Notes under the pieces: model-generated | Told to the model about the DNA's origin: nothing | The model's input: the letters and a program-made list of their open reading frames with translations, nothing else | The model's database searches: none | Source of the DNA: Thermodesulfovibrio yellowstonii DSM 11347 | Lineage (GTDB): Bacteria; Nitrospirota; Thermodesulfovibrionia; Thermodesulfovibrionales; Thermodesulfovibrionaceae | NCBI RefSeq assembly: GCF_000020985.1 | Contig: NC_011296.1 | Span: 372,001-436,000, forward strand | DNA length: 64,000 nt | Reading direction: 5' to 3' | Position numbers and translations under genes: made by a program | In this document: positions 6,311-56,131 of the stretch, in pieces | Position numbering within the stretch: the stretch's first letter is position 1 | Layout of the letters: each line of letters begins with the position of its first letter

Positions 6311-7735
6311 ATGCCTGAAGGCTTTAAATCAAAACTAAAAAGAACATCAGGTCTTTATAAAAAATTTCTTATTATATTCAACCTATCTATTATTCTTTCC
6401 ACCATTATTCTTCTTGCAGGACTTGTCATAACAGGATATGAAATTTATGGAGAAGAATTTATTATGAAAAAGATGGGAGTTCTAAATAGTCTTTTGAAAT
6501 TTGCTCCTGTCCTCGGTATATTTGCTATAGCATTAATAGGAATATCAACAGCTAATGTTTTTTGGTTTAAAAAACAGATTGTATCTCCTCTCGCAGAAAT
6601 TGAAGAGGCTATGGAAACTATAAGAAAAGGAAATTTTGAAAAAAGAATAAAATTAAAGACAGGTGATGAGTTTCAAAAAATTGCAGATACTTTTAATCAA
6701 ATGATGGACAAACTTTCCACGCTTATCCAGACAGAAGAAGAAAAGAAAGAAATGCAGAATAACATCATAAAATTTTTACAGATAATGACTCAGGCATCTG
6801 AAGGAGACCTTACTCAGAGAGCAGAAGTTACTCCAGATGTTTTTGGTTCATTGGCAGATGCATTTAATCTTATGACAGATGGATTGAGCGAACTTATTAA
6901 AGAAGTTAAAAATTCAGCAGAAGATGTTGGTCAAAAAAGTAACATTCTCAATGATATAATCCAAAAACTACAAACAGGAGCAGAAATCCAGAAACAGGAA
7001 ATTGAGAAAATAGCATCACTTGTTGAAGAAGCTGCAGAAATTGCTTACCAGACAAAAGAAAAGACAACAGTTGCTACAGATGTTTCAAAAGAAGCTATGA
7101 ATGCAATTATTAAGGGTAACGAAATTGTTACAGAAACAATTAATAGTATGCAGTTAATCAGAACAGCTGTTCAGGGAATAAACAGAAGGATGAAACTTCT
7201 TTCAGAAAAATTAATGGAGATAGGAACAATATCAACAATAATCAGTGACATAGCAAATAGGACAAATCTCCTTGCCTTGAATGCGTCAATTGAAGCAGCA
7301 AGAGCAGGAGAAGAGGGGAAAGGATTTGTTGTTATTGCTGAAGAAATAAGGACACTTTCTGAAAAAACAGCTAAATCATCTAAAAATATCGCAGATATTA
7401 TCACAGCAATTCAGGAAGAAGCAACAGCTGTTACAAAAAATCTTGAGGAGGAAACTAATTATGTTGAGACAGGAACTACAATGGTAAGCCAGACTACATC
7501 AGTATTTGAAAAAATTGACTCAATCATAAAAAATATCGGACAAATTATAGGTGAAATTAATGAATCAACATTGAAACAGAAAGAAATAACAGATAGTCAG
7601 GTAAATTCAGCTCAAACAGTTAAGGAAGTAACTGAAAATATATATGGAATAACTACTGAACTTACAGATGTATCTAATTCTTTGGCAGATACTTCAAAAG
7701 AGCTTGTTAATGTAGCAGAAAAATTTAAAGTTTGA
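6311..7735 (+). CDS. PilJ-like methyl-accepting chemotaxis protein
   Basis: A 474-aa receptor. Two transmembrane helices (about residues 22-46 and 60-83) are separated by only a short loop, so there is no sizeable periplasmic sensor domain. A HAMP domain follows (about 84-136), then a second HAMP-like segment (about 150-200), then a long coiled-coil signalling domain whose tip reads [20 protein letters not shown]. The arrangement resembles receptors of pilus-type (PilJ/Frz) pathways. The start has an excellent ribosome-binding site (AAGGAGG). It converges on the CheA-containing operon, with 32 nt between the stops, so it is probably the receptor for that kinase. It may sense membrane, cytoplasmic or pilus-derived cues rather than a soluble ligand. 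Confidence 0.85.
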
Positions 7736-7767
7736 TAAAGAAGTCAGAATATTATACGAATACTTTA

Positions 7768-9996
7768 TTATAAAAGTTTTAATCTGTCAAGAATTTCTTC
7801 TTCTATAGTCTTTTCATCAAAGGGCTTAACAATATATCCATCTGCACCTAACTCAAAAGCTTTTTCTTCATGCTTTTTGGTTCCTCTTGAGGTAAGAACA
7901 ATAATCGGCAAATTTTTAAATCTCGCATCTTTTCTTAATCTACTGATAAGTTCATAGCCGTGCATAACAGGCATTTCAAGGTCAGTTACCACCATGTCAA
8001 CCTTGTTTCTTTCAAGTAAATTTAGTGCTTCAACACCATCTTTTGCAGTGTATACCCTTAATTTTTTTGCTTCAAGAACACTTTGAAGAGTTTTTCTTAC
8101 GCTTATAGAGTCATCTACAACCAGAACAGACCCTGAGTATATGAAAGATTCTGTAATTTTATCAGATAAGCCTGTAAATATAAATTCTTCTTCAAATAAT
8201 TTCAATGGGTCAATGACATATCTTGGACTACCTTTGCCAGATATAAAATAGCCAAGATACTGTATTAACCCTTCAAGAAATTTGCCAAAATTGTGAACTG
8301 TTGCTTCCTCATGTCCTAAAATCTCATCAACAATAAGTCCTTTTCTTATTCCTGAAAAATTAAAAACAATTATATAACCCTTCTGAAGTGTTTTGCCATT
8401 TAAAGAGAAAAAAATTTCTGAAAATATCTTAACAGGGATAATTCTGTTTTTATGATTAATGCTTCTTTCTTCAAGTGCATGGGGAAAATCTTCCAGTGTT
8501 AAAATTTCTTCAATATAATTAATAGGTATTGCAAAATCCAGATTATGAGAACTAAAAATCAGAAGATTGCTAATAGTTAATGATTGCGGAATTTTTATTA
8601 TGAATGTGGTTTCTTTATCTAATTCTGAAAAAACTTCTATTGTGCCTTTAAGTTTTGAAATAGCTGTTTTAACAATATTAAGCCCCATTCCTCTTCCACT
8701 TTGGAAATCTATCTCATCTGAAGTTGAAAACCCAGGGACAAATATGTAAGAAAGAATTTCCTCCTCGGAAATAAAAGATGTATATTCTGAAGAAATCAAT
8801 CCTTTCTGCACAGCTATTTCTTTTACTTTATCAATATCTATTCCTCTACCATCGTCTTTGATAGCAATGACTATATATTTCCCTTCTTTTTTTACATCAA
8901 TTTTTATATGACCTGTTTGTTCTTTGCCTTTTTTTATTCTTTCTTCAAAAGATTCAATCCCGTGCTGGATAGCATTACGAAGAATATGAATAATTGGCTC
9001 ATATAGTGAGTCAAAAACAGGTTTATCAATTTTTATTTCTGCTCCTTTAATATCTATTTCAACAGTTTTTCCTATGTCTTTTGCGTTTTCCTTAATGGCT
9101 TCAGAAAGTCTGTGTAAAAGTTTTCCGATAGGTATCATTCTTATCTCAATTAAACTGTCTTTTAAATAATTGATTTCTCTGCCCAAAGATTTAAAGTGAG
9201 ATGAGAGGTTTTCAGAAAAAATAAACAAAGAATTTATACCCTCTGTTATATCATTTGTTATTTCCTGAATTTTTCTTAAAAAGATGTGGTATTCATCATA
9301 TCTGTCAAACTCAAGGTCACTAAAGTCAACAAAAAAACTATCTATTACTTTCTGTCCTCTTTCATATGTGCTTAACCAGTACATATCTGAAAAGTCCGTT
9401 ATTTCTTTTAAAAGCTTTTTTCCGCTATTTGATATTTCTTCAACAATGTGGAATAGTTCTTTTTCTTTATCGGTTATGGTATTTTTCTGAACAAGAACCT
9501 CGCTCAAGGAAGCAAATATATTTTCAATAACTTTTAGCTCAACTCTTACATTATCAGTTACTGGGAGGGCATCAAAAATTACAGATTTTTGTTGCACTGC
9601 AGGAATCTCTTTTTTATTTAAAATATTATCAATTAATTCTATAACTTCCTTTTCAATTTCGCTTTTTTCTTCTCCTGCTTCATGAACTTCATTTACAAGA
9701 GCAACGATTAGATTAATAACGTTTCTAATATGATAAATAAGGGAATTATCATAATTTATTTCTCCATTCAATAAAGCTTCAAAGAGATCTTCAAGTTTAT
9801 GAGACAATGTTGTAATCTTATTGAACTTAACTATAGATGCAGAACCTTTTAAAGTATGAGTTGCTCTAAAAAGACTTTCTATGGTGCTTTTGTTATATCC
9901 TTTGGTTTCAAGTTCTTCTGTCCCTTCAACTAATACATTCAAACAGTCATCAGCTTCCAGAAGAAAATATTTTATCAGCTCAGATTTATTTATCAT
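7768..9996 (-). CDS. Hybrid chemotaxis histidine kinase CheA-REC (PilL/ChpA/FrzE-like)
   Basis: A 742-aa protein with domains in order: Hpt (about 1-105, phospho-accepting His47 in ATHTLKGSA), a long linker, a CheA-type dimerisation and HATPase module (about 240-460, with HILRNAIQHG, DDGRGID and GRGMGLNIV), a CheW-like coupling domain (about 470-600), and a C-terminal receiver (about 620-742; acceptor Asp in VVTDLEMP, KPF motif present). It phosphorylates receivers in response to receptor arrays. The fused REC is typical of pilus-motility systems (PilL/ChpA, FrzE). No P2 domain is obvious. It overlaps cheW by 11 nt. No cheR or cheB lies in the window, so adaptation enzymes must be encoded elsewhere or be absent. 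Confidence 0.9.
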   Translation of the reverse strand: MINKSELIKYFLLEADDCLNVLVEGTEELETKGYNKSTIESLFRATHTLKGSASIVKFNKITTLSHKLEDLFEALLNGEINYDNSLIYHIRNVINLIVALVNEVHEAGEEKSEIEKEVIELIDNILNKKEIPAVQQKSVIFDALPVTDNVRVELKVIENIFASLSEVLVQKNTITDKEKELFHIVEEISNSGKKLLKEITDFSDMYWLSTYERGQKVIDSFFVDFSDLEFDRYDEYHIFLRKIQEITNDITEGINSLFIFSENLSSHFKSLGREINYLKDSLIEIRMIPIGKLLHRLSEAIKENAKDIGKTVEIDIKGAEIKIDKPVFDSLYEPIIHILRNAIQHGIESFEERIKKGKEQTGHIKIDVKKEGKYIVIAIKDDGRGIDIDKVKEIAVQKGLISSEYTSFISEEEILSYIFVPGFSTSDEIDFQSGRGMGLNIVKTAISKLKGTIEVFSELDKETTFIIKIPQSLTISNLLIFSSHNLDFAIPINYIEEILTLEDFPHALEERSINHKNRIIPVKIFSEIFFSLNGKTLQKGYIIVFNFSGIRKGLIVDEILGHEEATVHNFGKFLEGLIQYLGYFISGKGSPRYVIDPLKLFEEEFIFTGLSDKITESFIYSGSVLVVDDSISVRKTLQSVLEAKKLRVYTAKDGVEALNLLERNKVDMVVTDLEMPVMHGYELISRLRKDARFKNLPIIVLTSRGTKKHEEKAFELGADGYIVKPFDEKTIEEEILDRLKLL

Positions 9997-10396
9997 CCCT
10001 CTTTTCTGCAGGTTTTTGAGAACTGACTTTTAGTTGTTCAAATAATTTTTCAGGATCAATAAAATCCTCCACAACTATATCTGATTCAAAATTAACAAAA
10101 AATGGAGTAATATCTGATAAAATTCCTATTTTTTCTCCTTTTACATCAATAACCAGCAATTTATTATCAGAGTAGTTTAATCTTTCAATATTATAAACTT
10201 TGGCGAGGTCTACTGCGGGAATGATTTTACCTCTAACAGGCAATGCACCGACAATATAATCAGGTGCCCCCGGAATAGGGAAGATTCGGGTAACATCCAA
10301 AACTTGCATAACACTTTCTTTTGGTATTAGAAACTCTCTTTCTCCTATACCAAAAACACAGTAAGATTTTTCTGTTTCTTTTATTTCTTCAGACAT
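9986..10396 (-). CDS. cheW: CheW-like coupling protein
   Basis: A 136-aa single CheW domain (YCVFGIGEREFLIP, VRGKIIPAVDLAKVY). It couples chemoreceptors to CheA at the cytoplasmic face of the membrane. The start overlaps the end of the upstream REC gene by 16 nt and the stop overlaps cheA, so cheW and cheA should be translationally coupled. It is of ordinary CheW length, without extra domains. Confidence 0.88.
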   Translation of the reverse strand: MSEEIKETEKSYCVFGIGEREFLIPKESVMQVLDVTRIFPIPGAPDYIVGALPVRGKIIPAVDLAKVYNIERLNYSDNKLLVIDVKGEKIGILSDITPFFVNFESDIVVEDFIDPEKLFEQLKVSSQKPAEKRDDK

Positions 10397-10746
10397 TTTT
10401 TTATAGCTACCAAAAGGTCAATTGGTTCAAAAGGTTTTGTAATATATTCATCTGCACCCTGCATCTTACCCCAGAATTTATCAGCTTCTTCCTTTTTAGA
10501 AGTTACAAGAATTACAGGAATATTTTTAGTTTTATCATTCTTTTTTATTTCCCTGCAAATCTGAAATCCGTTTTTCTTAGGCATAACCACATCTAAAATT
10601 ATTAAATCAAAATTTTCATTTTTAAGCAGGTTTTCTGTTTCTTCTCCATCCTTTGCAAAAATAATGTTATATTCTCCTTCTTTAAGGATGGACTCAATAT
10701 ATTTTGCATCTACTGTAGAATCTTCAGCAACAAGAACTTTATACAT
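10381..10746 (-). CDS. Single-domain response regulator (PilG/PilH/CheY-like)
   Basis: A 121-aa receiver only: acidic pair AEDS, phospho-acceptor Asp52 (LIILDVVMP), conserved Thr/Ser in VTSK, and Lys in TKPF. The short insertion around EEADKFWGKMQGADEYITK resembles PilG/PilH regulators of the twitching-motility system. It is expected to receive phosphate from the neighbouring CheA and act on pilus motors or serve as a phosphate sink. An AGAGG Shine-Dalgarno precedes the ATG. Confidence 0.88.
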   Translation of the reverse strand: MYKVLVAEDSTVDAKYIESILKEGEYNIIFAKDGEETENLLKNENFDLIILDVVMPKKNGFQICREIKKNDKTKNIPVILVTSKKEEADKFWGKMQGADEYITKPFEPIDLLVAIKKCLKK

Positions 10747-10774
10747 TTTAATTTCCTCTTAAATTTGTATTATA

Positions 10775-12034
10775 TCATTTTAATGTTTCTTTAAAAAGCT
10801 CTGAAGGAGTATAGCGTTCTTTATTCAACAACCATTCCTCAGTAAAATCTTTCTTTTCAAAAATAAAGTTTTCAATTTGAGATTTTTTCAAAGCCGTTAT
10901 TGCTTCAATAGTAATATTTTTAATTTGTTCCTGAGAAAGTTCATTCAGTAGTTTAAAACCGAATTTCTGTTTCTGAAAGTTTGATATCCCATAAATGACC
11001 TGTCCGTATATAAATAAAAATTCATAGATTTCCCCTTTTCCATAAACAGTCAAAATACCACTTAATCCATTAGAATTTATTAGTGAAAAAATTTCAGGAA
11101 GTTTAAAAAAATTTAAATTTCCTGAGAGAATTAAAGAAGAATCTTTTATCAATCCATATTTTTTGAATATTCCTTCAATAGAACCATCAAAGAGGGTTAT
11201 AATTTTTTCATAAAAACTACTAAATTTATCCTCTATTAATTTCTCTAAACTACTCAAAGCATAAGCTGGACTGTCTTCCATTTTTTGAATTTCTTCTTTA
11301 GCTTGAATTTCCTCAACTTCAGGTTGGACAGTTTTTTCTTCAAATAAAAATTCTTCAGTAGATTTGATTTCTTCTATTTCAGGTATTTCTTCTATTTTTT
11401 CAGAGATTTCTAATTCAGGCTCCTTTAATATTTCCATGTTTTCTTTCATTTCTACAAAGTCAATTTCCTTTGCTAAATCTTGAGATTCTTCTAATAGAAT
11501 TTCATCAAGAGTCTCTTTTTCTTCTGGAAATTGTAAGGGTTCTTTTTGTTCAAGAGATAATATTTCTTCAACTTCAGGAATTTCTAAAGAAGGTTGCATT
11601 TCTTCTACTTCTTTTATCTCTATTTCAGATACAGGCTCTGAAATGTCAACAATAGGCTCAGGAACTTTGCTTAACGTTGTTCTAACTTTCTCTATAAGGT
11701 CCTCTGATTTGAAGGGCTTTATGAAATAGTCTAAAACTTGATATTTTTCAATAAATGTTTGTCCTACTGTCTCACCCTTTCCAGTAATTAAGATAATAGG
11801 AATATCTTTAAGAGTTTCATTATCTTTTATTAGTTTGCAAAATTGAGAGCCTGTCATTTTAGGCATTATAAAGTCTACTAAAATCAGGTCAGGTTTTACT
11901 GTTTCCGCAATTTTCAGCCCCTCTTCTCCATCAGCTGCTGTGTAAACCTCATATTCTGCTTCTTGTAAAGAAACTTCCGCAAGCTTTCTTACAAGAGGGC
12001 TATCATCTACTACTAAAATTTTTTCTTTTGCCAT
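10775..12034 (-). CDS. REC-PATAN (DUF4388) response regulator with acidic linker
   Basis: A 419-aa protein. N-terminal receiver (about 1-125, Asp54 in LILVDFIMP, Lys in FIKPF), then a roughly 130-residue glutamate-rich disordered linker with repeated EIPE/EEI units, then a C-terminal DUF4388/PATAN domain beginning about residue 290 (SGNLNFFKLPEIFSLI, GLSGILTVYGKG, FIYGQVIYG). In cyanobacteria PATAN-REC proteins bind the pilus extension motor PilB and reverse pilus-driven motility. Here the order is reversed (REC first). I chose the ATG giving MAKEKILVVD because it has AGGGG about 7 nt upstream; a TTG six codons earlier is possible. Likely an output protein of the CheA next door, by inference. 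Confidence 0.82.
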   Translation of the reverse strand: MAKEKILVVDDSPLVRKLAEVSLQEAEYEVYTAADGEEGLKIAETVKPDLILVDFIMPKMTGSQFCKLIKDNETLKDIPIILITGKGETVGQTFIEKYQVLDYFIKPFKSEDLIEKVRTTLSKVPEPIVDISEPVSEIEIKEVEEMQPSLEIPEVEEILSLEQKEPLQFPEEKETLDEILLEESQDLAKEIDFVEMKENMEILKEPELEISEKIEEIPEIEEIKSTEEFLFEEKTVQPEVEEIQAKEEIQKMEDSPAYALSSLEKLIEDKFSSFYEKIITLFDGSIEGIFKKYGLIKDSSLILSGNLNFFKLPEIFSLINSNGLSGILTVYGKGEIYEFLFIYGQVIYGISNFQKQKFGFKLLNELSQEQIKNITIEAITALKKSQIENFIFEKKDFTEEWLLNKERYTPSELFKETLK

Positions 12035-12044
12035 GTTTAACCCC

Positions 12045-13175
12045 TTATTCAAGAAGTTTTCTCATTGTAATACGCATTCTTTCAACTGCTTTTGCTAAGA
12101 TAGCAATTTCTCCTCGTGCATCTTTAATTTCTACTTTCTGAGATGTCTTACCCATTGATATCTCATCTGTGATTTTTGTAAGTGTTACTATCGGATTTAT
12201 TACATATTTATTCATGCCATATCCAATCAAAAGAGCAATGACTATAAGCATTATAATATAAACTGAAATATTTATACCAAGAATTGTAAAAACCTTCATT
12301 GGAGTGAGAATTCTCTCTTTGACAATATATATAAAACCTATTGTTTTACCAGAGAAATCTTTAAAGGGGCTATAAACAATAATATAATCTTTACCTGATT
12401 GAGAAACCTTTTCAGTATAATATTTCTCTTTTGATTGAGAAGCCTTTTTTAAAGTAGATTCAGAAATAAACAGTTTTGGGTCCTGTGCAGTAAAATAAAG
12501 AGAAACCCATTCTCCAAAGTTATATTTAACGTCTTTTAAACCTGGCCAGCCAGAAAGTAATTCTTTATAAACAGCTACTCCAATTTCAGCATTTATTGCT
12601 TTTTTAATCTGCTCAATCTCAGTTTTTAATCCTCCTCCAAAATCAACACTTCCGACATAGTTACCTTTGTAGAAAACAGGTTCTACACCTCTCAATCCAA
12701 CTCCTCCCAAACCGATCTCAACCCCTCTTACACCTTTTCGGGTTGTTTCTACCTGCACAACGGTTTTACGGTCTTTTGAAATATTATCACCAAAGTGTTC
12801 CAGATCATGAAGCCTGAGAAGAGAAACTGCTGGGGGTATATGGAAATGAAATTGAGCAAGACCAAAATTTTCCTTTAAATAATTAAAACTGGGTAGAAAT
12901 TTATCTATTAAACGATTTCTATCTTTTTTATTAATGGCTTCTTGAATATCAGGAATATGCGTAACCAGAGCAGCCATTTGTTGATAATGTATTGTAGATG
13001 TCTCAAGAAAAACCTGCACTGTATTAACTGATGCTTCAATGTTTCGTTGTTCTTCCTCCTTTAAAAGGCTTACCTGCATAATATAATTAAAAACAACCAG
13101 TAGACTCATACCAACAATTAGAGTTGCTAATAGAGGCAAAGCTATTCCTGTTCTTAATCCAAATTCTATTTTCAT
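12045..13175 (-). CDS. Membrane sensor with double-Cache and HAMP domains but no output domain
   Basis: A 376-aa protein. TM1 (about 14-33), a periplasmic double-Cache domain (about 35-290; diagnostic HFHIPPAVSLLRLHD and PVFYKGNYVGSVDFGGGL segments), TM2 (about 293-318), HAMP (about 320-372), then an immediate stop. It has neither a kinase nor a methyl-accepting domain. HFHIPP-type Cache domains are normally attached to such outputs. The downstream REC-PATAN gene starts in another frame with its own RBS, so this is not simply an undetected fusion. The upstream RBS is strong (GGAGGG). Perhaps HAMP-HAMP contacts pass the signal to the PilJ-like receptor, or the protein controls a cytoplasmic partner. 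Both ideas are inference. Confidence 0.8.
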   Translation of the reverse strand: MKIEFGLRTGIALPLLATLIVGMSLLVVFNYIMQVSLLKEEEQRNIEASVNTVQVFLETSTIHYQQMAALVTHIPDIQEAINKKDRNRLIDKFLPSFNYLKENFGLAQFHFHIPPAVSLLRLHDLEHFGDNISKDRKTVVQVETTRKGVRGVEIGLGGVGLRGVEPVFYKGNYVGSVDFGGGLKTEIEQIKKAINAEIGVAVYKELLSGWPGLKDVKYNFGEWVSLYFTAQDPKLFISESTLKKASQSKEKYYTEKVSQSGKDYIIVYSPFKDFSGKTIGFIYIVKERILTPMKVFTILGINISVYIIMLIVIALLIGYGMNKYVINPIVTLTKITDEISMGKTSQKVEIKDARGEIAILAKAVERMRITMRKLLE

Positions 13176-13730
13176 TTATAGCCCTCCGATAAATTTATTT
13201 ACCTCATTTAAAAATTCTTTTCTTGATGCAGGGTCTTCTATCTCTTCTTTTAACAAATTGACCAAATTTAACAAATCATTCTTAGATGGCGGGTTAGCAG
13301 GAATCCATTTTTCAGCAATATATTTTTCTGTAATTTTACTTCCTATCGGTCCAATCTGTCTGATTAATGCTGTTTTTATTACATCTTTTATTTTTTGAAA
13401 ATCTGAGGAATGAAAAGACATAGGGTCTTCAGAATTGATAAACTTGTTCATATTTCTCAAAGTGGTTATTATATCTTCGGTTGAAGGGATATCATTGCTT
13501 GTTATATCAACTGAAATCTGAGGAATGAAATTGTATGAAACAGGTTCTCTTGAGATTATTTCATTTAAACATTGCACACCTTTTTTAAATCCAAATGAAA
13601 GATAATAGATTTGTCCAGTTTTAAAATAAAACTTGAAAAGATTTTTTTCTGAAGCAAAAATTATTGTTAAAAGCCCTGTGCTTTTGCTTTCATATAAATT
13701 TTCAATAATATCTGCAAGATTTTTTTTCAT
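13176..13730 (-). CDS. Stand-alone PATAN/DUF4388-like protein
   Basis: A 184-aa soluble protein. The N-terminal half (about 1-90) has the DUF4388/PATAN pattern: a leading helix, STGLLTIIFASEKNLFKFYF, then KTGQIYYLSFGFKKGVQCL. The C-terminal half (about 105-184) is helical, with a RQIGPIGSKITEKYIAEKW segment similar to domains that often accompany PATAN domains in regulators. The ATG has no clear Shine-Dalgarno and lies 4 nt after the thiE stop, so it may depend on re-initiation. The stop abuts the Cache-HAMP start. Likely a non-phosphorylatable partner of the REC-PATAN protein; function unproven. Confidence 0.65.
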   Translation of the reverse strand: MKKNLADIIENLYESKSTGLLTIIFASEKNLFKFYFKTGQIYYLSFGFKKGVQCLNEIISREPVSYNFIPQISVDITSNDIPSTEDIITTLRNMNKFINSEDPMSFHSSDFQKIKDVIKTALIRQIGPIGSKITEKYIAEKWIPANPPSKNDLLNLVNLLKEEIEDPASRKEFLNEVNKFIGGL

Positions 13731-13734
13731 AAAA

Positions 13735-14337
13735 TCATTGGAAAAGTTCTAAAAAATCTTTAACATTACTCTTAACATCTCCTACTAAAATTCCTGAGGC
13801 TATAGCCACGTATTTGCAACCCATCGCTTTTAAATCCTTTAAATGCTGTTTTTTAATGCCTCCTATTGCGACAACAGGAACTTTTATTTTTTTACAAATC
13901 AAAGATAGCATATCATATCCTTTTGGTTCAAGAGCATCTTTTTTCGTTGTAGTATAAAAAATTGGTCCATACCCAATATAGTGAGCTCCTTTTTTTTGAG
14001 CATCAAGAGCTTCTTCAAGATTATGGGTTGATATGCCTATAATGCCTGAAAAAAATTTTTTTGCAACTTCAATTGGAAGGTCATTCTGTCCCAAATGGAT
14101 ACCATCAGCTTTTATAGTAATTGCTATGTCTAAGTAGTCATTGATAGTTAAAAGAGCGTTGTAGTGCTTTGTTATCTCTTTTACCCAAAATGCGTATTTT
14201 AAAATCTCTTTTCTTGGTAATTCCTTTTCTCTATATTGAATCCATTTGATTCCCGCTTTTAGTGCTATTTCTAATTTTTCTGGAATTTCTTTTGATGAAA
14301 CAATAAGACATATTGATGGAAGTTCAGGATTTATCAT
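13735..14337 (-). CDS. thiE: Thiamine-phosphate synthase
   Basis: A 200-aa TIM barrel joining HMP-PP and HET-P to thiamine phosphate. The complete active-site set is visible: KWIQYREKEL, TINDYLDIA, GIHLGQNDLP (metal-binding Asp), GPIFYTTTKKD, PVVAIGGI and IASGIL. It differs from the paralogue in the thi operon at 57.3 kb, which lacks the Asp of the GQxD motif, so this copy is the better candidate for the true ThiE. The start overlaps accC by 14 nt. It is not under the TPP riboswitch seen elsewhere in the window. Confidence 0.9.
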   Translation of the reverse strand: MINPELPSICLIVSSKEIPEKLEIALKAGIKWIQYREKELPRKEILKYAFWVKEITKHYNALLTINDYLDIAITIKADGIHLGQNDLPIEVAKKFFSGIIGISTHNLEEALDAQKKGAHYIGYGPIFYTTTKKDALEPKGYDMLSLICKKIKVPVVAIGGIKKQHLKDLKAMGCKYVAIASGILVGDVKSNVKDFLELFQ

Positions 14338-49937: not shown

Positions 49938-51551
49938 ATGAAAATTTCAAAACTTATTCAATTAGTAAGTATTACAACACTTTTTTCTTTTATATTTCTT
50001 TTTGTTATTTTTTACTTTACTGGGAAAACTTCTCAGGATAATGTCAGGGAACTTGTGGATAAGGATATTCAGCTTCTTGTTGCGTATAAAGATATTTATG
50101 GACATGGTTCTCAGACATTAGCTTCGGTCAGAAATGTTCTGGCATCTAATGATGAACAGTCAAAGAAAAATGCTGAGAAATACTATAAAGAGTTAGTACA
50201 AACGATTGATGAAACAATAAAAATAGCACCTGCTAACATACAGGAAGAATTGAAAAAACTTCTGAAAATGTGGCAAGACAATCATGTTTTAATAGCAGAA
50301 ATAATTAAACTTACAGAACAAGGTAAAAAAGAAGAAGCCCTTAAGAAATCACAAGAACTTACAAATGGATTCAGAAAAGCAAGAGATATAGTTTTTAATC
50401 TTAGTGATTTGCAAAAATCTAAGTTTTTAAAAGCAAAAGAAAATATGGCAAATACTATGAAAAGAAACTTTTATCTCTTTGCAGGAATATTTGTATTTGC
50501 AGCTCTTTTGACCAACATATTTTTGTTTTTCATGAAAAAATCATTAAAGGTTATCCCAGAGATGGCATTAAAGATGGAAGAGATAGCGAAGGGAGCAGAC
50601 AGAGGTGATATAGGGTCAATAGAGTTTGATAAAAAACTTGAGGAGAGGAAAGATGAGATAGGCTTAATAGCAAGAGGAGTAAGAAAGGTTGATGAATTCA
50701 CTTTATCAGTAATAGAAAATGTAAAGAAATCTCTGGGGACGATTCAATCAGTAATAGGAGCACTTGAGGCAAATGTTGAGACATTAAAAAAGAAAGCAGC
50801 GGAGCAGACATCACAGTCTCATCAAATAGCTACAGCAGCGGAAGAAATGAGTCAGACAATAACTGACATAGCAAAGAATGCTTCTCAGGCATCTGACTTA
50901 GCAACAGAATCACAAAATATTGCACATGAAGGAGTAACACTTTCTGATAAATCAACAACAATAGTCCAATCAGCTAATCATTCAACCACAGAGTTGAAAA
51001 GGACAATAGATTCACTGAATAAGAGAGTAGAGGAAATTGGAGAGATAGTTATAGTTATAAAAGACATAGCAGATCAGACAAATTTGCTTGCTCTTAATGC
51101 AGCAATAGAGGCAGCGAGAGCAGGAGAACAGGGAAGAGGCTTTGCAGTAGTGGCAGATGAAGTAAGGAAACTTGCAGAAAGAACAATAAAATCTACAGAA
51201 GAGATATCACAGAAAATAGAAGCGGTACAGGCAGAATCAAGGGAGTCATTGAAAAGCATGGATGTGACAGCAAGGGAGGTAGCTGAGGCACTGGAAGCAT
51301 TAAATGAAGTAAAGGATGCATTGAACAGAATAGCAGAACATTCAATAAAAGTAAAGGATACAATAACGCAGATAGCTACAGCTACAGAACAGCAATCCTC
51401 AACATCTGATGAGGTAGCCCGTTCAGCAGAGCGTTCAAGCGGGCTTGCTCAGGATGTAAAAATAACATCAGAGACAGTGGGACAGGAAGTGGAAAATCTT
51501 AATGAAGTCATAAAAAAGCTTACTGAGGCTATTAGAGGTACAAAAGTTTAG
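49938..51551 (+). CDS. Methyl-accepting chemotaxis protein with four-helix-bundle-type sensor
   Basis: A 537-aa receptor. TM1 about 9-29, a helical periplasmic domain of about 140 residues, TM2 about 175-197, a HAMP-like region (about 198-260), and a signalling domain with tip [45 protein letters not shown] lies 7 nt before the ATG. It is oriented away from the tRNA gene and followed by a helicase gene. Unlike the PilJ-like receptor it has a full periplasmic domain. No CheA lies beside it, so it may feed the kinase at 8-10 kb or one elsewhere. Confidence 0.9.
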
Positions 51552-54511: not shown

Positions 54512-56131
54512 ATGTTTAAGAACCTTACAATTGGTAAAAAACTCGGGATTGGTTTTGGGGTTGTTATAGCATTACTAATAATTCTTGGATTTTTGGTGTT
54601 CACCCAATTGACAGCCATTGAAGGAAAGTTAGGAGATATTGATGAAAGAACAAATAAGCTAAATGATGCAGCAATTATAAGGAAAGAAGTTAAAGATATA
54701 TTGACCACCATAAGAGACATAATGCTGACTGATGATATAAAGCGAAAAGAGGAGATGAAAAAAGAAATTGATGAGCATAGGAAGATTTATAAAGAAAAAT
54801 TTGAAACTTTAGAAAAAGTTACCCGTTCTGAGCAGGGAAAGAAAATACTACAAGAAATAGAAAATGCTATAAAAGATGCTGCATCGGCAAATAATAAAGT
54901 TATAGAACTAAGTTTTGCAGGAAAAAATAAGGAAGCTATAGCATTTTTTAACAAAGAGTTGCCTAAGAAAGTTGAAAGGATTAACAAGTCACTTGATGCT
55001 GCTGTGAGCTTTCAACATGAAAATTTAAGTAAAAGAGTGAATGAAATCAAAACTTCCATTAGAACTCAAATAGTTATATTAATTGTTATATCACTCGCGA
55101 GTGCCTGTATCGGAATTTTCTTTGCTCTCTTCATCTCCCGTTCAGTCAAGAAACCTGTTACCCAACTAAAAGGAGCACTTGAGAAAGTAGCACAAGGAGA
55201 CCTATCAGTTGATATAAGAGTAGAAAGCAAAGACGAACTTGGAATGATTGCACAATCAGTGCATGAAGCAATAACAAGCATAAAACGCCTTATAGCAGAA
55301 TCAAAGACAATCTCAAGCTCTCTTGCATCATCTTCTGAAGAACTTTCAGCAACAACAGAAGAGATATCAAGAAACCTCAAATCCCAGACAGAAAGAGCAA
55401 GCCAGATAGCCTCTGCAGCAGAAGAAATGAGCCAGACAGTAGTTGACATAGCAAAGAACGCATCAAACATAGCAGAAGTAAGTGTAACAACAGCCAGTGT
55501 TGCAAAAGAAGGAAAAGACATGACAATGAACACAGCACAAGAGATAAAAGTAATTGAAGGAGCAATAGGGAAACTTTCAGAAGTAATCAATGTATTAGGA
55601 GACCGTTCTCGTCAGATAGGAGAGATAGTAACAGTGATCAAAGACATAGCAGACCAGACAAATCTACTTGCATTGAATGCAGCAATAGAGGCAGCTCGGG
55701 CAGGAGAGCAAGGAAGAGGCTTTGCAGTTGTTGCAGATGAAGTAAGAAAATTAGCAGAGAGGACAACAAAGGCAACAGATGAGATAGCAGAGATGATAAG
55801 AGGAATACAGACAGAGGTAGATGTAGCAGAGGGTTCAATGGAAGATGCAACGAAAAAGGTGGCAAGTGGAGTTGAGCTAAGCAACAAGTCAGCAGAGATA
55901 CTTGGGCAGATACTGAGCAAAGCACAGGAACTTCAGTCAATGATACAACAGATAGCATCTGCAACAGAGGAGATGTCTTCAGTGACAGACCATATAACAC
56001 AGGATATAGGAAGCATAGCAGAGGGTTCAAAGGAGATATCTCTTGCAGTGGATCAGTCAGCTCAGACAGCAAGTGATATAGCAAGATTGGGTGGAGAATT
56101 AAATACAGCAATAGGAAGATTTAAGGTTTAG
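54512..56131 (+). CDS. Methyl-accepting chemotaxis protein (4HB_MCP type)
   Basis: A 539-aa receptor. TM1 about 13-31, a four-helix-bundle periplasmic domain (about 32-188), TM2 about 190-212, HAMP (about 213-265; VKKPVTQLKGALEKVAQGDL), and a signalling domain with [20 protein letters not shown] at the tip. The signalling half is very similar to that of the receptor at 49.9 kb, while the periplasmic half differs, so different ligands are likely. AGGAGGGG lies before the ATG. The thiamine operon promoter starts about 28 nt after the stop. Confidence 0.9.
   Translation: MFKNLTIGKKLGIGFGVVIALLIILGFLVFTQLTAIEGKLGDIDERTNKLNDAAIIRKEVKDILTTIRDIMLTDDIKRKEEMKKEIDEHRKIYKEKFETLEKVTRSEQGKKILQEIENAIKDAASANNKVIELSFAGKNKEAIAFFNKELPKKVERINKSLDAAVSFQHENLSKRVNEIKTSIRTQIVILIVISLASACIGIFFALFISRSVKKPVTQLKGALEKVAQGDLSVDIRVESKDELGMIAQSVHEAITSIKRLIAESKTISSSLASSSEELSATTEEISRNLKSQTERASQIASAAEEMSQTVVDIAKNASNIAEVSVTTASVAKEGKDMTMNTAQEIKVIEGAIGKLSEVINVLGDRSRQIGEIVTVIKDIADQTNLLALNAAIEAARAGEQGRGFAVVADEVRKLAERTTKATDEIAEMIRGIQTEVDVAEGSMEDATKKVASGVELSNKSAEILGQILSKAQELQSMIQQIASATEEMSSVTDHITQDIGSIAEGSKEISLAVDQSAQTASDIARLGGELNTAIGRFKV

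What the first reader, a model, noticed from the sequence alone, without database searches (positions are those of the whole stretch)
6311..13730. PATAN-rich pilus-type chemosensory cluster without CheR/CheB
PilJ-like receptor, CheA-REC, CheW, REC, REC-PATAN, Cache-HAMP and a lone PATAN-like protein form one unit. In cyanobacteria PATAN proteins act directly on pilus motors. The reversed REC-PATAN order, the acidic 130-residue linker, two PATAN proteins and the missing adaptation enzymes suggest an output mode different from known Pil-Chp systems. This is the best candidate here for an undescribed system.
Basis: partly seen in the sequence, partly recalled or inferred. Interest (0 to 1): 0.58.

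Follow-up and report, generated by a model that had tools for sequence, protein, structure and literature searches.

The report
Pilus-type chemosensory cluster with PATAN outputs
Seven neighbouring genes of a heat-loving bacterium form a sensing circuit that probably steers its surface pili; it is a conserved cousin of the circuit cyanobacteria use to crawl, with an extra sensor-plus-adaptor gene pair that seems to travel as a unit.

Summary
In detail: six tightly packed minus-strand genes (lone PATAN, dCache-HAMP, REC-PATAN, CheY, CheW, CheA-REC) and a convergent MCP at 6311-13730. All ten congeners looked at have the full set. The CheA falls in a 50-row clade of Nitrospirota and Desulfuromonadales-type bacteria; 48 of its 49 named loci hold a PATAN gene, none a CheR or CheB match. 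Best reading: a pathway of the cyanobacterial Pix/Tax kind acting on type IV pili; no output was tested. Two points look new. First, the lone PATAN gene and the output-less sensor-HAMP gene are a recurrent pair (18 of 22 adjacent), found also without CheA nearby, whose sensor type follows the PATAN tree; elsewhere the sensor carries a heme-c motif. Second, the helical insertion of PATAN resembles the N-terminal domain of PilB-type ATPases (hhalign 95.5-97%; eight controls at most 6.3%). The window genus has lost that insertion. New variant of a known kind.

The parts
6311..7735 (+). MCP, 474 aa: two TM segments with a loop of about 20 residues (no sensor domain), HAMP (two stretches), signalling hairpin with 140 residues after the tip (40H geometry)
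7768..9996 (-). CheA-REC, 742 aa: one Hpt, ATPase, CheW-like domain, C-terminal receiver
9986..10396 (-). CheW, 136 aa
10381..10746 (-). CheY-like single receiver, 121 aa
10775..12052 (-). REC-PATAN response regulator, 425 aa: receiver, 185-residue acidic spacer, short PATAN core; the helical insertion and the C-terminal winged-helix-like part of relatives are missing
12045..13175 (-). dCache_3-TM-HAMP sensor, 376 aa, ending right after HAMP, no output domain, no cysteine
13176..13730 (-). Lone PATAN protein (PATAN2), 184 aa: PATAN core without insertion plus a C-terminal helical domain with a conserved GP.G motif that no Pfam model covers

Best explanation
A chemosensory pathway of the cyanobacterial Pix/Tax kind. 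A 40H-type receptor array with CheW controls CheA-REC; CheA phosphorylates the CheY and the REC-PATAN protein; phosphorylation changes how PATAN engages the type IV pilus motor (PilB/PilT side), setting pilus activity or polarity. The CheY and the CheA receiver act as competing or sink receivers. A second input comes from the sensor-HAMP protein, whose output is most likely the neighbouring lone PATAN protein, so that two PATAN proteins converge on the pilus. Adaptation has no dedicated enzymes: the pathway does without, or borrows the CheR and CheB of the flagellar cluster. Shown: gene set, domains, conservation, conserved phosphotransfer residues, the recurrent pair, pilus ATPases in the genome. 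Inferred: phosphotransfer, PATAN-motor binding, the step from sensor-HAMP to PATAN2, and the ligand.
For: Gene set. Full set in ten congeners; most of it in 8 further loci of other families or classes (L082 without a recognised MCP). CheA clade of 50 rows, SH-aLRT 97; 48 of its 49 named loci hold a PATAN gene. Nitrospirota loci outside the clade have the order REC-PATAN, CheY, CheW, MCP, CheA (e.g. L182, L184, L198). Receptor arm of 140 residues, as in an A. baumannii MCP encoded near its ChpA-like CheA (140 up to FKL, 142 in all; labels mine); E. coli Tar 126 without its tail (my count). Papers report that PATAN regulators of Synechocystis bind PilB (passages of PMC10519157 and PMC9090330). 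The PATAN insertion of relatives resembles the PilB N-terminal domain. Pilus ATPases in the genome. No Roadblock/LC7 match in the genome, which argues against an MglA/MglB route. PATAN2 beside a sensor-HAMP gene in 18 of 22 named loci, also without CheA nearby, sensor type following the PATAN2 tree.
Against: No experiment. PilT-family matches occur in all 40 genomes searched, so presence and absence give no test. A PilB-type gene lies in only 4 of 80 named loci, two of them sister genomes, about what I would expect by chance (rough estimate of mine). The window REC-PATAN has lost the PilB-like insertion, so if that is the docking part this genus must dock otherwise. Relatives carry a winged-helix-like C terminus (HTH_47, best E=0.0013), which would also suit a DNA-binding output. 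Geobacter EsnABC, class 40H, was tied to electrode growth, with a c-di-GMP link proposed (passages of PMC5585712). PATAN is also reported near MglA genes (passage of PMC4316618) and in PatA of heterocyst patterning, so PATAN does not by itself mean pili.
Confidence: 0.58

Rival explanations
1. The sensor-HAMP protein and the MCP form a split chemoreceptor: the periplasmic sensor of one signals through HAMP contact to the kinase-control hairpin of the sensor-less MCP, and PATAN2 is an adaptor or scaffold.
For: In 14 distinct genomes of the window genus (window, L048-L057, L124, L128, L135) the MCP has an estimated 15-39 residues between its two TM segments, and 13 of the 14 loci hold a sensor-HAMP gene without output domain (the L128 contig starts inside the cluster, at REC-PATAN).
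Against: In other genera the MCP has 130-192 residues between TM segments where two were found, L132 excepted (4HB_MCP in L069), and the sensor-HAMP gene is often there too; the pair also occurs with no CheA or MCP nearby.
Confidence: 0.25
2. The output is not the pilus but gene expression or c-di-GMP: REC-PATAN is a regulator with a winged helix, and the pathway controls biofilm or surface respiration, as proposed for Geobacter Esn.
For: Winged-helix-like C terminus in relatives; Geobacter EsnABC is described as class 40H and its mutants grow poorly on electrodes (passages of PMC5585712); an EAL protein beside CheW and MCP in L058, a different cluster.
Against: The window protein lacks the winged-helix part. 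PATAN regulators described in the cyanobacterial passages act on pilus motility. The same electrode screen also listed pil genes.
Confidence: 0.2
3. It is a second flagellar chemotaxis pathway; the PATAN proteins modulate the flagellar switch or act as phosphate sinks.
For: The genome has a flagellar cluster with its own CheA, CheB and CheR, and five other MCPs of the genome share the 140-residue arm, so receptors could be shared.
Against: The two CheA proteins lie in different parts of the tree. Flagellar genes beside this cluster were not searched for; none shows among the window genes tested.
Confidence: 0.1

Closest known systems
Synechocystis Tax1/Pix, Tax2, Tax3/Pil pathways
   Same: MCP, CheW, CheA, one plain CheY and one PATAN receiver protein; a PATAN receiver protein in all three tax operons (passages of PMC5812497). 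The CheA receiver and the pixGHIJL gene order are recalled
   Different: PATAN is N-terminal there (passage of PMC10519157), C-terminal here; I recall no sensor-HAMP + PATAN pair in the tax operons; light input in Pix. No cyanobacterial sequence was compared here
Pil-Chp of Pseudomonas/Acinetobacter
   Same: 40H receptor geometry, CheA with C-terminal receiver, two receivers, pilus ATPases in the genome
   Different: One Hpt, not many; no CheR/CheB; a PATAN output, which PilG lacks (passage of PMC10519157); CheA cores not grouped
Geobacter EsnABC (class 40H MCP, CheW, CheA)
   Same: 40H-class chemosensory proteins in Desulfuromonadales, an order where clade loci occur
   Different: Not compared by sequence; c-di-GMP output proposed; PATAN has 0 occurrences in that paper
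Deinococcus proteolyticus plasmid cluster (L120)
   Same: Receiver, CheW, MCPs, Hpt/CheA protein, DUF4388 protein and receiver protein side by side
   Different: CheA 27% identical, outside the clade; two MCPs; no sensor-HAMP gene annotated
sCache_heme (Tll0287/DUF3365) proteins with TM + HAMP
   Same: Same architecture as the sensor-HAMP gene of the relatives: Tll0287-like + HAMP with CXXCH
   Different: The window protein has dCache_3 and no cysteine; PATAN has 0 occurrences in that preprint

Membership tests
Type IV pilus (Tfp) class of chemosensory systems | CheA core groups with known Tfp CheA proteins | tested here: inconclusive
   window in its own clade (97); the A. baumannii ChpA-like CheA sits on a long branch in a group with E. 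coli and the own flagellar CheA; deep forks weak; no PixL at hand
Type IV pilus (Tfp) class of chemosensory systems | 40H receptor | tested here: met
   140 residues from tip to end. Not exclusive: five other MCPs of the genome also have 140
Type IV pilus (Tfp) class of chemosensory systems | Several Hpt domains in CheA (frequent, not universal) | tested here: not met
   One Hpt only
Type IV pilus (Tfp) class of chemosensory systems | C-terminal receiver in CheA | tested here: met
   REC at 624-735
Type IV pilus (Tfp) class of chemosensory systems | Acts on pili | not testable with these tools
   Pilus-type ATPases are present in the genome
Pil-Chp (Pseudomonas type) | CheR/CheB-type adaptation genes in the cluster (recalled) | tested here: not met
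   None in the cluster; 0 of 49 clade loci by phmmer at E up to 1e-6
PATAN / DUF4388, REC-PATAN gene | Pfam score above cut-off | tested here: met
   29.0 bits vs 25
PATAN / DUF4388, REC-PATAN gene | Alpha-helical insertion (named in the title of the 2006 description) | tested here: not met
   Missing in the window genus rows aligned, present in relatives
PATAN / DUF4388, lone protein (PATAN2) | Pfam score above cut-off | tested here: not met
   18.0 bits vs 25; hhalign 93% over the N-terminal half; 15 of 23 members match at E up to 1
sCache_heme sensor | Tll0287-like domain with CXXCH | tested here: not met
   Window protein: dCache_3, no cysteine. Relatives: Tll0287-like E=1.5e-35 in L069; CXXCH in 22 of 22 rows of that type, 19 distinct genomes

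The most novel reading that the evidence does not exclude
The sensor-HAMP gene and PATAN2 are a kinase-free two-gene transmembrane relay: a periplasmic Cache sensor (heme c, perhaps NO or redox, in most carriers; dCache here) signals through its bare HAMP directly to a PATAN adaptor that acts on the pilus motor, and this module is plugged as a unit into PATAN chemosensory clusters. PATAN itself carries a captured copy of the PilB N-terminal domain through which, in most lineages, it docks on or competes within the motor.
Probability: 0.25. Interest if true: 0.72.

Novelty: new variant of a known kind. Interest (0 to 1): 0.5.

Why it matters
How PATAN proteins talk to pilus motors is open. This clade offers non-photosynthetic versions from two large bacterial groups, a candidate docking element (an insertion that looks like a piece of PilB itself) and a natural experiment, since one genus has dropped it. 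The sensor-HAMP + PATAN pair, if it signals without a kinase, would be a transmembrane signalling arrangement that I do not know from the papers seen here, and it would link periplasmic heme-c sensing to surface motility.

Tried and rejected
Co-occurrence with pili: useless, PilT-family matches in 40 of 40 genomes. PilB near the cluster: 4 of 80 named loci (L131, L132, L142, L151), near chance by my estimate. Weak PATAN hits at the N terminus of two PilB proteins (17-18 bits) first looked like a PATAN-PilB fusion; rejected, that stretch precedes MshEN and T2SSE as in other PilB proteins; this led to the insertion comparison. MglA/MglB route: no Roadblock match. Fold match for PATAN2: none at E up to 0.001 (best 0.069). 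Tfp class by tree: unresolved. The REC-PATAN model (mean pLDDT 83) was not sent to the fold search because receivers would swamp the list. Plasmid search with REC-PATAN: the 20 rows shown match mainly the receiver part; with the PATAN domain, one Thermomicrobium record. In one search rows L051 and L053 picked up the wrong gene and were ignored, leaving eight genus rows including the window. The segment named 'rec' runs to residue 239 and so includes the PATAN beta part, which explains its 90% match to PATAN2. One full-length PATAN comparison with PilB gave 93.6%. The dCache tally rests on a model hit: 25 rows, of which three (L083, L085, L086; 57-62 bits) have CXXCH and match Mcp40H-20_sensor, with Tll0287-like below its cut-off, in the two checked by Pfam; I count these three with the heme type.

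The 49 clade loci are contig stretches of 5 to 23 kb, so 'absent' means absent from the stretch held, among ORFs of 80 aa or more. One search kept the best 80 of 299 relatives. The 48 of 48 order count needs PATAN over 40 bits; the seven genus loci in the named set score lower and are not in it, though they too read REC then PATAN.
Full report
What is there. The window is bases 372001-436000 of a single 2,003,803-base contig. At 6311-13730 lie a plus-strand MCP and, convergent to it, six packed minus-strand genes: lone PATAN, dCache_3-HAMP, REC-PATAN, CheY, CheW, CheA-REC. CheA has one Hpt, ATPase, CheW-like and receiver domains. H-kinase_dim is not detected in it but is in the orthologue L069; such misses are known for this domain (passage of PMC10782961). 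In an alignment of ten CheA proteins the phosphotransfer positions H47 and D672 are invariant (their roles assigned by me).

The rest of the genome. Five CheW-domain matches, two of them in CheA proteins (L080), eleven MCP matches, one CheR match, one CheB seen. The other CheA lies with CheB, CheR and flagellar genes (FlgG-type, FlgH, FlgI, FlgK, FlhA-type). PilT-family matches include two over the cut-off near 1.986 Mb and a 568-aa PilB-type protein at 0.671 Mb. No Roadblock/LC7 match.

Conservation. In 245 genomes of the phylum the lone PATAN protein has a match in 40 (E up to 0.001) and the CheA in 53 (E up to 1e-90). The ten congeners matched all have the full cluster. In eight loci of other families or classes (L066, L068, L069, L072, L073, L075, L082, L084) the cluster recurs, mostly in the same order; five of them have a Tll0287-type sensor-HAMP gene in place of dCache-HAMP, three none, and L082 has no recognised MCP (Pfam for L069). 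A scan of named genomes kept the best 80 of 299 relatives. In the CheA core tree (88 rows, quick method) the window falls in a 50-row clade of Nitrospirota and Desulfuromonadales-type bacteria (SH-aLRT 97). Of its 49 named loci 48 hold a PATAN gene; the exception, L147, is a 5.4-kb contig. None of the 49 has a CheR or CheB match, whereas five loci of Acidobacteria and KSB3 outside the clade do. Of the 31 loci outside the clade 11 hold PATAN over 40 bits, several in the order REC-PATAN, CheY, CheW, MCP, CheA.

In the 80 loci, proteins with both domains at my cut-offs are REC-PATAN in 48 of 48; 8 further proteins have PATAN alone, four of them at or within 90 bases of a contig start and one a piece of a split gene. 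In 56 rows the spacer is 53 to 253 residues and net acidic in 52. So order and linker are no sign of a new output mode. What is particular to the window genus is a loss: its REC-PATAN lacks the helical insertion of PATAN and the winged-helix-like C terminus of relatives.

The PATAN insertion and PilB. The insertion (29 of 30 aligned relatives used) matches the N-terminal region of 20 PilB-type ATPases of this phylum by hhalign at 95.5% (51 columns, 29% identity), and at 97.0% the first 75 residues of the 17 that have that region. Eight control alignments (Hpt, P3, ATPase, CheW, MCP, Tll0287-HAMP, PATAN2 C-terminus, winged helix) gave at most 6.3%. Each is a single pairwise comparison, not a database search. 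Pfam shows a trace of the same (PilB of L151 against DUF4388, E=0.075). A search for PATAN with MshEN lists three papers; I saw passages of them around PATAN, and none states such a resemblance. Whether it is known elsewhere I cannot say.

The sensor-PATAN2 pair. PATAN2 is a PATAN core without insertion followed by a helical domain with a conserved GP.G motif. In 18 of 22 named loci it is next to a sensor-HAMP gene on the same strand; the other four (L131, L134, L137, L142) have none adjacent. The pair also stands without CheA nearby: with Tll0287-type HAMP proteins in L063, L064, L070 (an M48 peptidase beside each), with a CXXCH-HAMP protein in L083, L085, L086, with dCache-type HAMP proteins in L059-L062. 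All 22 Tll0287-type rows (19 distinct genomes) have CXXCH; of 25 rows hit best by the dCache model only the three of L083, L085 and L086 do. In the PATAN2 tree (53 rows, 43 different) the 21 proteins with a CXXCH-less partner, plus L058, form one group (support 96) that includes loci of other families, while the window's CheA groups (support 88, below the 95 mark) with clusters that have the heme sensor or none. G186 carries both kinds (L060, L082). Either the pair was exchanged as a unit, or two pairs existed and were lost differentially; both make the two genes a unit of inheritance. A preprint reports that a TM-HAMP protein of the heme Cache family binds NO (abstract and passages of PMC12889525); whether those of this clade do is untested.

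The receptor. By a hydropathy estimate the MCP has 15-39 residues between its TM segments in 14 distinct genomes of the genus (window, L048-L057, L124, L128, L135), against 130-192 in the other clade MCPs where two TM segments were found, L132 excepted. So in this genus the sensor-HAMP gene encodes the only periplasmic sensor of the cluster.

How it most likely works. Receptor array with CheW and CheA, phosphotransfer to CheY and REC-PATAN, PATAN acting on the pilus motor; a second input by sensor-HAMP to PATAN2. The pilus step rests on cyanobacterial work that I saw only as passages in other papers (PMC10519157, PMC7690835, PMC9090330); Han 2022, Makarova 2006 and Wuichet and Zhulin 2010 were not read.

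Literature. 'PATAN domain' occurs in 10 held papers and 'DUF4388' in one; by title none is about Nitrospirota chemosensing. The listings (25 of 35 shown) show no title on this cluster. Passages only were seen of PMC4316618, PMC5585712, PMC5812497, PMC7690835, PMC9090330, PMC10519157, PMC10782961, PMC11580455, PMC11934962 and PMC12889525. All this covers the held open-access library only.

Noticed in passing
window 13735-14337; L083, L085, L086; L059: A ThiE gene abuts the lone PATAN gene in the window; the PATAN2 + CXXCH-sensor pair of distant f21 genomes also lies beside ThiE, and L059 has ThiC beside CheY-PATAN2-dCacheHAMP. ThiE was not found at this spot in three congeners (L048, L049, L050).
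   Followed up: no
L063, L064, L070: An M48 peptidase gene lies beside the stand-alone Tll0287-HAMP + PATAN2 pair in the three genomes looked at.
   Followed up: partly
L151:6282-8084, L154:6154-7989: A PilZ-PATAN-DnaJ-TPR protein (Pfam run on L151 only) is encoded divergently near REC-PATAN.
   Followed up: no
L125, L126, L127, L135: In one subgroup of the genus the sensor-HAMP protein is shortened to about 275 aa, with a weak single-Cache match in the two tested.
   Followed up: partly
window 50943-51440 and 55481-56020: Two further MCP signalling domains lie in the window, outside the cluster (converted from contig positions).
   Followed up: no
own genome 1496294-1496704 (L032/L081): A CheW-domain protein far from either CheA.
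   Followed up: no
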